The notes below the pieces were generated by a model that worked only from the letters and a program-made list of their open reading frames with translations, made no database searches and was not told the DNA's origin. Position numbers and translations under genes: made by a program. A DNA stretch of 64,000 nt from Candidatus Chloroploca sp. Khr17 (GTDB taxonomy: Bacteria > Chloroflexota > Chloroflexia > Chloroflexales > Chloroflexaceae): NCBI RefSeq assembly GCF_004138165.1, contig NZ_RYFF01000016.1, positions 1-64,000 of the forward strand, read 5' to 3'. Within the stretch, counting starts at the first letter, position 1. The number at the start of each line of letters is the position of its first letter. Positions 17,001 to 21,948 of the stretch are shown piece after piece.

Positions 17001-17834
17001 TTACAATTCAGGCAGTAACTGACATACCGGGCAAAAGAAGGTACTGCGCTGGGCAATGACCACGCGTTCGATGGTGGTTCCGCAGCGCTGGCAGGGTTGT
17101 CCAGCGCGATCATAGACAAGAAAATAGTCCTGTTGCTGTCCACGACGGCCATAGCCATTGCGGTAATTGCGCAACGAACTGCCCTCGTGTTGAATAGCCT
17201 GGGTAAGGATGTCACGGATCGCCTGATGCAAGGCTGCAACGCCATTGGCATCAATCGCAACAGCAGGCATCAAGGGGTGCAGGCGGGCAAGCCAGAGGGC
17301 TTCGCTGGCATAGATATTGCCCATGCCAGCAATGAGGCGCTGGTCAAGCAGCAAGGGCTTGATTTTGGTGCGGCGTCCGGCCAAGATATGGGCAAGCGTT
17401 GCCGCCGTAAAGGTCTCTTCGAGTGGCTCGGGGCCATGAGCCGCATCGAGTGCGCCCAAGCCAGCAGGATCAAGCAGGCGCACCCGACCAAATTTGCGCT
17501 CGTCATCAAAAAAGATCCGCCGCCCATCATCAAGGCAGATGATCAAATGCACATGCGTACGCGCCGGTTCTGCGGGATCATGGACCGTCAGGTTGCCCGA
17601 CATACGCAGGTGGATCGCCATTGTCAGATCGTTCGCGAGGTGCAGCAAGACCCATTTGGCACGTCGAGCGACCTGCATAATGCATTGCCCGCTGATCATC
17701 GCAGCAAAAGCTTCAGCAGACAACGGCTCAAGCATGCGCTCCCAATCGAGGCGTTCAAGGCCAACGATGGTACGTCCTGTGACCTGTGAGGCGAGGGAGC
17801 GGGCGGCAATTTCTACTTCGGGTAATTCTGGCAT
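17001..17834 (-). CDS. mutM: Formamidopyrimidine-DNA glycosylase
   Basis: Base-excision repair enzyme removing 8-oxoguanine and FaPy lesions with AP-lyase activity. It starts MPELPEVEIAARSLASQ, where the Pro after Met is the catalytic nucleophile and Glu3 the general acid. QRLIAGMGNIYASEALW is the helix-two-turn-helix region. The C-terminal zinc finger is CQRCGTTIERVV followed by FFCPVCQ. The upstream frame to 17999 overlaps moaE and can be ignored; AGAGGAAGG lies just before ATG 17834. Last gene of the photolyase-moaD-moaE-mutM operon, 13 bp after moaE. Confidence 0.95.
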   Translation of the reverse strand: MPELPEVEIAARSLASQVTGRTIVGLERLDWERMLEPLSAEAFAAMISGQCIMQVARRAKWVLLHLANDLTMAIHLRMSGNLTVHDPAEPARTHVHLIICLDDGRRIFFDDERKFGRVRLLDPAGLGALDAAHGPEPLEETFTAATLAHILAGRRTKIKPLLLDQRLIAGMGNIYASEALWLARLHPLMPAVAIDANGVAALHQAIRDILTQAIQHEGSSLRNYRNGYGRRGQQQDYFLVYDRAGQPCQRCGTTIERVVIAQRSTFFCPVCQLLPEL

Positions 17835-17847
17835 AACCTTCCTCTCA

Positions 17848-18258
17848 CTACTCACGCCACTCGACGTCACCGTCGGCCCAGTGTTCTTGTTTCCAGATCG
17901 GTGCAATCGCCTTGATCCGATCCATGATATACTCGGCGGCCTCGAACGCTTCGTGGCGATGCGGTGCGGCGACAACCACGAGCACCGCAGTCTCACCAAT
18001 GGTGAGTTTGCCTACCCGGTGATGCACGGCAATGTGACCGACCTTCCAGCGGCTTTTTGCCTCATCAGCAAGCTGGGCCAGCACCGGCACAGCCATTTCG
18101 GCATACGCTTCGTAATAGAGCCAGGCCGTGGGCCGACCGCCAAAATGATTGCGCGCCACACCAGCAAACGTGACGACGGCACCATCTTCGGGTGTCGTCA
18201 CATACGCCACCAGTGGGGCAGGCTCAAGTGGTTCAGCAGTAATAAGGAACGGCTGCAT
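17848..18258 (-). CDS. moaE: Molybdopterin synthase catalytic subunit MoaE
   Basis: Large subunit of molybdopterin synthase, converting precursor Z to molybdopterin with sulfur from thiocarboxylated MoaD. Motifs include GAVVTFAGVARNHFGGR (active-site region), LYYEAYAEMA, HRVGKLTIGE, VAAPHRHEAF and IKAIAPIWKQEHW, which holds the catalytic Lys. AGAGG lies six bases before ATG 18258, favouring this start (136 residues) over in-frame ATGs at 18264 and 18309. The start lies inside the end of moaD, so the two genes overlap by 26 bp in different frames. Confidence 0.93.
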   Translation of the reverse strand: MQPFLITAEPLEPAPLVAYVTTPEDGAVVTFAGVARNHFGGRPTAWLYYEAYAEMAVPVLAQLADEAKSRWKVGHIAVHHRVGKLTIGETAVLVVVAAPHRHEAFEAAEYIMDRIKAIAPIWKQEHWADGDVEWRE

Positions 18259-18517
18259 TGGCATCCTCTGTGCCACCACTGACGGGTGGAATAAAGGCAA
18301 CTTCATCATCCTGATGGAGTTGCGCAGACGGCTCGACGAAGGTCTGATTCACCGCAAAGAGCAGGCGACCGGTATAGCCAACCAGGCGGGGATAGGTCGT
18401 GACCAGGGTTTGCCAGAGCTCGGCGACCGTGGCGTGATCAGCGACCTCGTAGGTTTGTTCAGCCTGGCCCACAATATCGCGGTGACCGGCGAAAAAGCGT
18501 ACACGCACCGTGATCAT
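18233..18517 (-). CDS. moaD: Molybdopterin synthase sulfur carrier MoaD with C-terminal tail
   Basis: Ubiquitin-fold sulfur carrier. The body (MITVRVRFFAGHRDIVGQA to EVAFIPPVSGG) is normal, and the Gly-Gly that must be adenylated and thiocarboxylated lies at about residues 81-82. The frame does not stop there: twelve more residues (TEDANAAVPYYC) follow before TGA. Canonical MoaD ends at Gly-Gly, so this form would need processing, or a frameshift into overlapping moaE. The ATG overlaps the stop of the preceding gene (ATGA). See findings. Confidence 0.88.
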   Translation of the reverse strand: MITVRVRFFAGHRDIVGQAEQTYEVADHATVAELWQTLVTTYPRLVGYTGRLLFAVNQTFVEPSAQLHQDDEVAFIPPVSGGTEDANAAVPYYC

Positions 18518-18993
18518 GGCGATTGCTCCGCATATGCTTGGGGGCCAGAACCTGTTGGGCGCAGCGCCTCGGTCTCGACCCGACGCCAGAAGGCGCTGAA
18601 ACGTCGCGGGGCTGCACCACGCCAGGGTACCAGAGGCTGAGGTTGATAGACAACAACCTTGAACTGACTGCGCAACTGCTGGACATACTGCTTAAAACGA
18701 GGGGCAACGCTCGTGGTCACGTGGATCTCATCGGCGGCGTGGGTCACACAAAACGTACGGATCGTCGCAACGACCTCACCCCGATAGATAAACCCATTCC
18801 GGCCTTCAAGCGCCTCAAGCGCCGACTCGTAGAGAAAAAAGAGCCGCTTGAAACTGAGGCGGGCCTCACGCAGGAAGGGTTCATCAAAGACAAAGATCGC
18901 CGGTGCCTCGGGACGGGCCACAAGCGCCGGATCAACCGAACTGAGGCTATCACCATGCAACCAGACAATGGCATTCGTCATAGACATCCTCAC
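18514..18993 (-). CDS. Photolyase N-terminal alpha/beta domain as a separate protein
   Basis: A 159-residue protein resembling the antenna-binding Rossmann-like domain of cryptochrome/photolyase proteins: AIVWLHGDSLSSVDPAL matches the usual strand-loop start, PAIFVFDEPFL the second strand, and RLFFLYESALEAL the helix. No FAD-binding domain follows; that is encoded by the gene immediately upstream. Start by GTG at 18993, sharing GTGA with the stop of that gene; ATGs at 18987 and 18981 are alternatives. Its stop overlaps moaD's ATG. It probably acts with the upstream FAD protein. Confidence 0.7.
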   Translation of the reverse strand: MRMSMTNAIVWLHGDSLSSVDPALVARPEAPAIFVFDEPFLREARLSFKRLFFLYESALEALEGRNGFIYRGEVVATIRTFCVTHAADEIHVTTSVAPRFKQYVQQLRSQFKVVVYQPQPLVPWRGAAPRRFSAFWRRVETEALRPTGSGPQAYAEQSP

Positions 18994-19778
18994 TCAGCAA
19001 AGAGGCGAGCCGCGAGTTCTTCATAGCTTGCATCAAAGGGACAGCCCTCGCGAGCAAGGTGGCAGGTAGCGCAGTAGGCCCCACCACTGAAGCGCTCGAC
19101 ATTCTCGCGGTTGAAGAAATAGGGCTTGTGGCTAAAGGTACTGGCGATCCATTGCCACGAGAGACTATTGGAGGCAGGGTCGCCGTCGAGCAAATGACGG
19201 TAGAAGAGCGCGGCTCCATCGCGCCAATCGATGCCACGCCAATGTTGCAGATAGGCGGCGACCCACATCCGGGCATGATTATGCATATAACCGTTGGTAT
19301 AGAGCTCACGCAGCGCTGTATCAAGGCAGACCAACCCGGTCGCAGCCTGTTCGACATCGGCAGGCACACCTCGCTCACGGCGCAGGGGCACTTTAGCTGG
19401 CTCAAGATCCTCGTGAACGGCCTCGCCTTTTTCGGCATACACGAGTTGCCAGAAGGCACGCCAGGCCAATTCATTGACAAACTTGGCGAGACCGGGGCCG
19501 GGGGCAAAACGGGTCACCAGGTAATCACGCACCTCGGCGAGCCCAAGGATACCGTGGCGAAGATAGGGCGAGAGCAAGGAGACGCCACGACGGACGACAT
19601 CATTGCGGGTACGGGCATAATCACGCGGATCAAAGCTACTCAGGCGATGCAGCGCAGCACGACGACCGCCAGGGGTAGCCGCAGGCTCGGCTGGGCCATC
19701 ATAGAGGCCAGCGAGGGCTTCGGCAAGATAGGCGGCACGCTCAGCGCGGGTTGGGTGCTCGGTTTGCAGACGCATCAT
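18990..19778 (-). CDS. Photolyase FAD-binding domain protein, stand-alone
   Basis: A 262-residue protein equivalent to the helical catalytic domain of photolyases and cryptochromes. Family motifs: SLLSPYLRHGILGLAEVRDY, FVNELAWRAFWQLVY, CLDTALRELYTNGYMHNHAR and LDGDPASNSLSWQWIAS. The N-terminal antenna domain is missing and is the next gene. Four Cys are notable: Cys151, Cys236, Cys239 and Cys246, the last three in YCATCHLAREGC near the C-terminus. Their arrangement resembles the cluster ligands of FeS bacterial photolyases. The start is chosen at 19778, six bases after an extended -10, as the longer frame reaches into the neighbouring gene. First gene of a five-gene operon. Confidence 0.82.
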   Translation of the reverse strand: MMRLQTEHPTRAERAAYLAEALAGLYDGPAEPAATPGGRRAALHRLSSFDPRDYARTRNDVVRRGVSLLSPYLRHGILGLAEVRDYLVTRFAPGPGLAKFVNELAWRAFWQLVYAEKGEAVHEDLEPAKVPLRRERGVPADVEQAATGLVCLDTALRELYTNGYMHNHARMWVAAYLQHWRGIDWRDGAALFYRHLLDGDPASNSLSWQWIASTFSHKPYFFNRENVERFSGGAYCATCHLAREGCPFDASYEELAARLFAE

Positions 19779-19797: not shown

Positions 19798-21948
19798 TCA
19801 AGGTTGAGGCAGTGATTGCCTTGCTTGATTTGATACGTGCGCATCTGGGCTGCCGAAATCAGGACGGGCAAAGAGATGGCGCTGGGTCGCGAGCTGTTCA
19901 GCATCAAAGGGGCGCAAGGTCGCAATCAACGCAAGCAACTCGGCCCGCGTAAAACCCGTGGCCTCAATGAGCGTAAAGGCGGTTGGATCAATAAGATTGG
20001 GCGGTATGGCAACATTGGCTGCCTCGGCGTCACTAACAGGATCAGGGTCACGACGGAGCGCGACGCGATACCGTTGGTTGAGTCCGGGTTGCAGCGTGAC
20101 TTGCCAGGGGCCTACCGTTACCTCTTCACCTGTCAACATCTCGTCATAGCCAAAAAGCAGCATCAAACGCTGCGCTTCGCCAAGATAGATCAGCGCAATG
20201 GGCATATCGATGAAATCCGTACCAGTCAACCACAACAAGAGCGCCCGATCCACCGCTGGAGGCGAAGTTGGCAACCAGGGCGGCGTAGCGATTGTAAGCA
20301 TACGGTCAGGATCGGTGACAATCCGTTCTTGAATCAAGGGCAACGCGGGATCGGCACTTGCGAAACGTGGCGCTTCGCTAAACTCACCAATGCCAGTCCA
20401 TGCTCGTTCAATCGCAAACGCGGCACGAATCTGCTCGGCATTGAGGATAAAACCCTCATCGATGAGGCGCCAGGTCACGCGACTCGTCTGGGTTCCACCA
20501 GCGGGGCCAAGCAACTCGGTCGCGCTCCGCAACAGGCCGTGTTGCAGATCAAAAGCCAGCAAAATGACCACCTGATGAGCACTCTCGGCGTCATCGGCAG
20601 GCGGCAAACCAAGTGGGCTCGTGCCAGAAAAACTGACAATCTGCACCATCCGCCCGCCGTCTTGTTGCCGTCCAAGCAAGCGCAGATCAGGCGAGGTTTG
20701 GGCCTGACGTAGATAATGAAGCGGGATCAACCATGGCCCGGTGAGGAGGCGCTCATCACGGGCACGCACCTGACCCGCCGCATCAACATCCTGATCAAGC
20801 AAGATCGGATATTCTTCACTCCATCCTGAAACCAACGACCCATAGAGTGCAGGCACATAGGCTGGATCAATGGCATAGGAAAGGCGGCGCGCCCCGTCGC
20901 CAATCTGAAGCTCATACGGTGCCCCACCGTCGCGGTGGCTCAGCTGCAAACGATGACGGGCCGGCAGGCGGGGATCAAGCCACATCTCGGCACGCATAGG
21001 GGCGACGAGCTGATCACTGAAATACCAGAGCGTTTCGTACCGTGCATACCAGACCCCATTCTGTTGTTGCGGGGTTGTATACCGTTCGATGGCCCGACTA
21101 ATGAGGGCCTGAACATCAACTGGCTCGCGCACGGTACGCTCAACGACCTGCACTGGTTGGCGGAGGAAGCCGGGCAAGACCAGGATCGCAATGAGCACAA
21201 AGACACTGACAGGCACCAGAGCCATCCGCGACGCACGCCAGTTGAAGGCATGGCGCTCTGCGGGTGGCGTCGCCATCTGCACAAGTTTGTGGGCCAGCGC
21301 AGCAGGCAGGATCTGGTCACGCAGCGCTTCGCGGAGGGCCGCTTCGAGGGTCGGCAACAGCTTGCCCCAGGTCTGATCAAACGTGCGGCAGAACGCACAG
21401 GTCGCGAGATGCCCGCGCACCGCCCCTGTCTGGCGTGAACCAACCGACGGATCAGCCAGCACCACCCGCACCGGCGCGCACAACTCACTGCTGACCCGGT
21501 CAGTCAGCGACATCCCGGCGGCAGGCCCGAGCGCCCGTGCGGCGGCAATCAGGGCCTCGCGTGCGGCGGCTGGTTCCATCCCCAGCACCGTTGCAAGCCG
21601 AGCGCCATCATACCCACGCAACAGATAGAGCGTCAACACCATCCGTGCTTGCAATGGCTGACCAAGCAGACTCCGATAGAGGGGTGGCAGATCGACAGGC
21701 AAACGGAGTGGGCGCTGCTTTTGTGGTCGGGCCTGCTCACGGTCGGCCACGATCAGCACACGCGCCAGGAGCGCTGGCTCATCAACGGGCAAATCAGGCG
21801 GATCAGCCAGGAGATCCTTGATCAGCGCCTTGAGCAGCCTGGACGCCTGACGCTCATCGCCAGCCGCAACAAGGGCCACCTGATAGAGCGTATGCCCATA
21901 GAGCGTCAGCGTCTCTTCGATAAACTCAGCAGCGATAGTCATGATCAA
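19798..21948 (-). CDS. Sigma-region-4/anti-sigma-like transmembrane fusion protein
   Basis: A 716-residue protein. Residues about 1-140 resemble an ECF sigma factor, with a region-4-like helix-turn-helix ([20 protein letters not shown], then [20 protein letters not shown]). Next comes an anti-sigma zinc finger with Cys157 and H180-x3-C184-x2-C187 ([10 protein letters not shown]). One transmembrane helix follows at about 241-261 and then an extracytoplasmic part of about 450 residues that I do not recognise. The layout puts promoter-recognition-like and anti-sigma parts in one chain. It overlaps moxR by 4 bp (ATGA), so the two are co-translated. A role in sensing envelope state is inference. 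Confidence 0.7.

What the first reader, a model, noticed from the sequence alone, without database searches (positions are those of the whole stretch)
18514..19778. Photolyase split into two genes in inverted order, with a possible FeS cluster
The FAD-binding catalytic domain (18990-19778) and the antenna/alpha-beta domain (18514-18993) are separate genes overlapping by GTGA, and the C-terminal domain is encoded first, the reverse of a normal photolyase. A simple frameshift cannot give this order; it needs a circular permutation by gene rearrangement. The FAD protein has Cys151, 236, 239 and 246, spaced +85, +3, +7. From memory, FeS bacterial photolyases use four Cys with about +88, +3, +13, so a cluster is plausible. 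Whether the two proteins form one enzyme is inference.
Basis: partly seen in the sequence, partly recalled or inferred. Interest (0 to 1): 0.68.

Follow-up and report, generated by a model that had tools for sequence, protein, structure and literature searches.

The report
Two-gene reversed-order iron-sulfur photolyase
Two neighbouring genes encode the two halves of a light-driven DNA-repair enzyme, in the reverse of the usual order and with sites for an iron-sulfur cluster; the arrangement was already reported from ocean cyanobacteria, but this survey finds that the two halves almost always occur together across many bacterial groups, even when the genes lie far apart or have become joined.

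Summary
The window encodes a 262-aa FAD domain (19778-18990, minus) followed by a 155-159-aa alpha/beta protein (18993 or 18981 to 18514). It is not new as a kind: the same reversed-order split FeS photolyase was published as Phr4/Phr5 (fused: Phr6) in marine Synechococcus/Cyanobium in 2022. The FAD half belongs to the "short photolyase-like" (SPL) type, described as lacking an alpha/beta domain. New here: (1) Profile comparison makes the alpha/beta protein a true homologue of the photolyase N-terminal domain, although it scores below Pfam's cut-off. (2) The two halves co-occur in 47 of 47 cyanobacterial genomes with the FAD half, against 0 of 197 others, and in 43 of 44 Chloroflexia; in 16 of the 47 the genes are unlinked. 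(3) Natural FAD-alpha/beta fusions occur in several phyla, in the same reversed order. (4) The four Cys are invariant in 50 homologues and align with those of FeS-BCP photolyases. (5) The active site looks CPD-type, not (6-4). (6) The "Z-domain" of NewPHL/Phr7 appears to be the same alpha/beta domain. Best reading: a two-subunit FeS CPD photolyase. No circular permutation need be invoked. Complex formation, cluster and substrate are inferred, not shown.

The parts
18990..19778 (-). FAD-binding catalytic subunit, SPL/Phr4 type, 262 aa
   Evidence: PF03441 E 5.2e-25; 46-74% identity to homologues across class Chloroflexia; model pLDDT 91, VIA Z 18-19 to photolyases
18514..18993 (-). alpha/beta (antenna-domain) subunit, Phr5 type, 159 aa from GTG or 155 aa from ATG at 18981
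   Evidence: weak PF00875; profile match to class I photolyase N-terminal domain, prob 97%, E 6e-11
18988..18991 (-). GAGG, Shine-Dalgarno-like, overlapping the FAD stop codon and 6 nt before ATG 18981
   Evidence: sequence; role is inference
19326..19328 (-). codon of Cys151, first predicted FeS ligand
   Evidence: invariant in 50/50 SPL, aligned with FeS-BCP Cys1
19071..19073 (-). codon of Cys236, second predicted FeS ligand
   Evidence: invariant in 50/50 SPL
19062..19064 (-). codon of Cys239, third predicted FeS ligand
   Evidence: invariant in 50/50 SPL
19041..19043 (-). codon of Cys246, fourth predicted FeS ligand
   Evidence: invariant in 50/50 SPL
18233..18517 (-). moaD, overlapping the alpha/beta stop by ATGA; conserved neighbour
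   Evidence: TIGR01682 above cut-off; next to the alpha/beta gene in relatives
17848..18309 (-). moaE, conserved neighbour
   Evidence: PF02391 E 1.5e-38
17001..17834 (-). fpg/mutM, DNA-repair glycosylase, conserved neighbour
   Evidence: NF002211 and TIGR00577 above cut-off

Best explanation
The two genes encode a two-subunit photolyase. The FAD subunit carries the flavin, the lesion pocket and a predicted [4Fe-4S] cluster near its C-terminus. The alpha/beta subunit is the photolyase antenna domain made as a separate protein; it docks on the FAD subunit, steadies it and may carry an antenna chromophore. The enzyme most likely repairs cyclobutane pyrimidine dimers (CPDs) with blue light; the (6-4) lesions are probably left to the separate FeS-BCP of the same genome. 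Shown by computation: homology of both halves, the invariant Cys and CPD-type pocket residues, near-obligate co-occurrence, recurrent fusion in the same order. Inferred: physical complex, cluster occupancy, substrate, antenna chromophore.
For: Homology of both halves. Cys aligned with FeS-BCP ligands, absent from class I. Pocket residues E103, W106, N167, M171, W210 match A. nidulans CPD photolyase E283, W286, N349, M353, W392; FeS-BCPs have Gln, Trp, His, Leu, Trp there. Co-occurrence: Cyanobacteria 47/47 vs 0/197, Fisher P 2e-51, 16 of 47 unlinked; Chloroflexia 43 of 44; 19 of 19 genomes without a neighbouring partner in the fetched flank carry it elsewhere, and three more. Natural fusions in Planctomycetota, Acidobacteriota, Rhodospirillales, Cyanobium/Synechococcus and Deinococcus. 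A fused homologue folds with pTM 0.91 over both domains. The own genome has a separate class I photolyase and an FeS-BCP. Neighbour fpg is a DNA-repair gene.
Against: No complex was predicted for the window pair itself (no multimer tool; no coordinates). In E. coli, Synechococcus phr4/phr5 raised UV-C survival about equally in light and dark (PMC9426592), which is not the signature of a photolyase. From memory, a recombinant SPL of Rhodococcus fascians repairs CPDs alone, so the alpha/beta subunit would be dispensable for catalysis. Four Chloroflexia genomes have the alpha/beta gene without the FAD gene (three are incomplete assemblies, G049 is not). Co-occurrence counts are not corrected for relatedness of the genomes.
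Confidence: 0.72

Rival explanations
1. The pair is a (6-4) photolyase, as suggested for Phr4/Phr5 because of the FeS cysteines.
For: FeS Cys are typical of prokaryotic (6-4) photolyases; loss of phr4 hurt survival after UV-C but not after UV-B (PMC9426592). VIA best hits include (6-4) enzymes, but tied with CPD ones.
Against: Pocket residues are CPD-type: Glu103 (48/50) where FeS-BCPs have Gln, Asn167 (50/50) where they have His, Met171 (44/50) where they have Leu. The own genome already has an FeS-BCP. The SPL class is described as CPD-repairing (PMC9649867).
Confidence: 0.13
2. The FAD protein is a self-sufficient short photolyase (SPL) and the alpha/beta protein has another job.
For: SPL were described as lacking the alpha/beta domain and as CPD-repairing (PMC9649867).
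Against: Near-perfect co-occurrence even when unlinked and recurrent fusion are not expected of independent proteins.
Confidence: 0.1
3. Photoreceptor (cryptochrome-like) pair that signals rather than repairs.
For: Family contains bacterial cryptochromes; phr4/phr5 effect in E. coli was not light-dependent.
Against: Lesion-binding residues are kept; neighbour fpg is a repair gene; no regulator was seen conserved next to it.
Confidence: 0.04
4. Broken remains of an ordinary photolyase (frameshift or rearrangement artefact).
For: Some relatives do have broken copies (L020, L047, L049).
Against: Order is reversed and conserved across phyla; dN/dS 0.12 and 0.16; invariant residues.
Confidence: 0.01

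Closest known systems
Phr4/Phr5 and fused Phr6 of marine Synechococcus/Cyanobium (PMC9426592, 2022; suggested as heterodimer in PMC3441193, 2012)
   Same: FAD gene upstream of separate alpha/beta gene, reversed order, four Cys spaced +85, +3, +6 (here +85, +3, +7), natural fusions
   Different: Found here in Chloroflexota and other phyla; next to moaD-moaE-fpg; active site argues for CPD rather than (6-4) repair
Short photolyase-like proteins, SPL (Xu et al. 2021, known here through PMC9649867 and PMC9178010; SePhrC of S. elongatus)
   Different: The missing domain is encoded by a partner gene, which the SPL description (as quoted in the papers read) does not mention
FeS-BCP / prokaryotic (6-4) photolyases (PhrB; DPRP family PF04244)
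   Same: Four Cys at aligned positions in the C-terminal domain
   Different: Canonical order in one protein, DPRP N-terminal domain, His-rich (6-4) pocket
NewPHL / Phr7 (FAD domain plus C-terminal Z-domain)
   Same: FAD domain first; the Z-domain matches the alpha/beta profile (prob 95%, E 2e-8)
   Different: One protein, no FeS cysteines
Class I CPD photolyase
   Same: Lesion-pocket and FAD-binding residues; homologous alpha/beta domain
   Different: Order alpha/beta then FAD in one chain; no FeS cysteines

Membership tests
Phr4/Phr5 | separate FAD gene followed by alpha/beta photolyase-domain gene | tested here: met
Phr4/Phr5 | four FeS-type Cys with +85, +3, +6/7 spacing | tested here: met
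   published positions C169, C254, C257, C263
Phr4/Phr5 | groups with the cyanobacterial FAD subunits rather than class I, FeS-BCP or Z-type | tested here: met
   SPL set of 127 rows incl. window, Synechococcus and Cyanobium is one side of a branch, but support only 76
Phr4/Phr5 | UV-survival function | not testable with these tools
   needs knockout
SPL | FAD-domain protein without its own alpha/beta domain | tested here: met
SPL | four conserved Cys | tested here: met
SPL | CPD repair activity | not testable with these tools
   pocket residues compatible
SPL | direct comparison with the founding R. fascians protein | not tested
   no sequence on hand; nearest anchor is G208, whose class I enzyme is 96% identical to A. 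nidulans photolyase and whose SPL gene has the alpha/beta gene directly downstream
FeS-BCP | four Cys at the cluster positions | tested here: met
   PhrB Cys 350, 438, 441, 454
FeS-BCP | DPRP (PF04244) N-terminal domain in the same protein | tested here: not met
FeS-BCP | (6-4)-type pocket (His-His motif, no Glu) | tested here: not met
Class I CPD photolyase | alpha/beta then FAD domain in one chain | tested here: not met
Class I CPD photolyase | CPD-pocket residues | tested here: met
NewPHL/Phr7 | fused C-terminal Z-domain, no FeS Cys | tested here: not met

The most novel reading that the evidence does not exclude
The whole FeS 'short photolyase' class is not short: it is a two-subunit (or reverse-fused) photolyase whose alpha/beta partner was missed because it scores below domain cut-offs and is often unlinked; and the Z-domain of NewPHL/Phr7 is that same alpha/beta domain, so SPL and NewPHL share one reversed architecture. 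This would remove the main structural reason for treating SPL as a minimal, one-domain ancestor of all photolyases and cryptochromes.
Probability: 0.6. Interest if true: 0.68.

Novelty: new member of a known kind. Interest (0 to 1): 0.5.

Why it matters
The pair itself extends a published cyanobacterial curiosity to Chloroflexota, Acidobacteriota, Planctomycetota, Verrucomicrobiota, Deinococcus and others. The survey bears on an open question, the origin of the photolyase/cryptochrome family: a proposed one-domain ancestor (SPL) appears to have its second domain encoded elsewhere in the genome. It also offers a natural split enzyme in which antenna domain and catalytic domain can be purified, mixed and exchanged to measure what the antenna domain does, and a possible answer to the 'missing half' noted for Prochlorococcus (PMC3441193).

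Tried and rejected
Frameshift/pseudogene reading: rejected by order, conservation and dN/dS. Chance PF00875-like hit: the single-protein Pfam score is weak and phmmer against PDB found nothing, but profile-profile comparison settles homology, with unrelated-domain controls at E above 0.03. Deep branching among SPL, Z-type, class I and FeS-BCP: several supports of 34-47, not used. Phages/viruses: ten phage records match (31-36% identity, none covering 80% of the query) and none in viral contigs. 8-HDF as antenna: no CofH in the own genome; absence of FO synthase was also noted for Chloroflexus in PMC9178010, so self-made 8-HDF is unlikely and the chromophore is open. Circular-permutation literature: nothing on photolyases.

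Full report
What is in the window. On the minus strand, 19778-18990 encodes a 262-aa protein with the FAD-binding domain of photolyases (PF03441, E 5e-25) and 18993-18514 a 159-aa protein with a sub-threshold match to the photolyase alpha/beta domain (PF00875, E 7.5e-4). The FAD protein matches the C-terminal half of class I photolyases of known structure. The second gene could start at GTG (overlap GTGA) or, more likely, at ATG 18981, which has GAGG 6 nt upstream and fits homologues. It overlaps moaD by ATGA; moaE and fpg follow. The FAD-alpha/beta-moaD-moaE-fpg order recurs in relatives of the same family.

Is the second protein really the missing half? Alone, it is too diverged for Pfam's cut-off. 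A profile of 79 relatives matches the N-terminal domains of ten class I photolyases at 97% probability, E 6e-11, over 131 collinear columns; the FAD domain as control gives nothing. This sub-threshold score can explain why such genes are annotated as hypothetical proteins, for example beside the FAD gene on a Deinococcus sp. QL22 plasmid.

Do the halves belong together? In 158 Chloroflexia genomes, 44 have the FAD half and 43 of these have the alpha/beta half; the exception, a species of the same genus, has a deletion that joins remnants of both. In 244 cyanobacterial genomes, exactly the same 47 have both and 197 have neither at these thresholds; one of the 197, G198, has a Z-type relative and no alpha/beta gene. 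In 16 of the 47 the two genes lie far apart or on different contigs. Of genomes picked because no partner was seen in the fetched flank of the FAD gene, 19 of 19 and 3 of 3 carry it elsewhere. When linked in the cyanobacterial set, the alpha/beta gene was on the same strand and downstream in all 31 cases (my reading). Single-chain fusions, always FAD first, occur in Planctomycetota, Acidobacteriota, Rhodospirillales and Cyanobium/Synechococcus and on three Deinococcus plasmids, whereas a fourth Deinococcus has the split form. The tree needs at least four changes between fused and unfused. These counts are not corrected for relatedness, and some genomes are incomplete.

Cluster and active site. 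The four Cys are invariant in 50 homologues and fall in the columns of the four FeS-BCP cysteines; class I proteins lack all four, and Z-type proteins lack the last three (three of 18 have a Cys in the first column) (PhrB positions). The pocket, however, is of CPD type: Glu103, Trp106, Asn167, Met171 and Trp210 correspond to Glu283, Trp286, Asn349, Met353 and Trp392 of A. nidulans photolyase, whereas FeS-BCPs have Gln, Trp, His, Leu, Trp. The genome also holds a class I photolyase and an FeS-BCP. I therefore favour CPD repair over the (6-4) role proposed for Phr4/Phr5.

Structure. The window FAD protein models with pLDDT 91 and aligns at Z 18-19 with CPD and (6-4) photolyases alike. A natural fusion from Synechococcus models with pLDDT 93 and pTM 0.91, which suggests a definite packing of the two domains.

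Relation to the literature. A heterodimeric photolyase from two adjacent genes was suggested for Synechococcus WH7803 in 2012 (PMC3441193). In 2022 the reversed order, the FeS cysteines and the fused Phr6 were described (PMC9426592). Separately, SPL proteins were defined as lacking the alpha/beta domain and proposed as family ancestors (as reported in PMC9649867 and PMC9178010; the original paper is not held). I found no paper that joins the two, namely that SPL proteins are generally one half of Phr4/Phr5-type pairs. The library holds open-licence papers only, so this absence is weak.

Side result. The C-terminal Z-domain of NewPHL/Phr7-type proteins matches the alpha/beta profile over 132 collinear columns (95% probability, E 2e-8 with all 18 sequences together; 59-67% for two subgroups and no match for the Prochlorococcus subgroup alone). 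If right, NewPHL has the same reversed architecture and Prochlorococcus does have the other half.

Verdict. A real, conserved, already described kind of enzyme, here in a new group, with a broader generalisation that is worth testing.

Noticed in passing
L020 1447-2124 (G015, same genus): One ORF joins FAD residues 1-187 (about) to alpha/beta residues 106-158 (about): both halves lost together by a deletion.
   Followed up: partly
L047 2402-3375 (G007) and L049 (G016): Broken copies of the FAD gene in two other genomes of the family (two frames in G007; truncated pieces in G016); the alpha/beta gene is intact in G007.
   Followed up: no
L173, L180-L184, L187, L188, L192-L196, L199-L203: Z-domain of NewPHL/Phr7-type proteins looks homologous to the alpha/beta subunit.
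   Followed up: partly
L006 3-1406 (own genome C92); L001 (C104): Own genome also encodes an FeS-BCP (PF04244) and a class I photolyase.
   Followed up: yes
L029, L030, L033, L036, L043 upstream of the FAD gene: An FeS-BCP gene lies directly upstream of the SPL gene in several genomes of one family of the same order.
   Followed up: no
L043 1475-2395, L045 2932-3924, L046 3109-4149: A predicted acyltransferase gene (by eye, NHPG..D motif) sits between the FAD and alpha/beta genes in a few genera.
   Followed up: no
L212 2566-3036 (G049): Alpha/beta gene without an SPL FAD gene in a nearly complete genome.
   Followed up: partly
window 19798-21948, minus: 716-aa protein without Pfam match upstream of the pair, with 38-42% identical neighbours in several genomes of the family.
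   Followed up: no
L143, L145 (G021, G022): Where the FAD gene is no longer adjacent, the alpha/beta gene stays beside moaD-moaE-fpg.
   Followed up: partly
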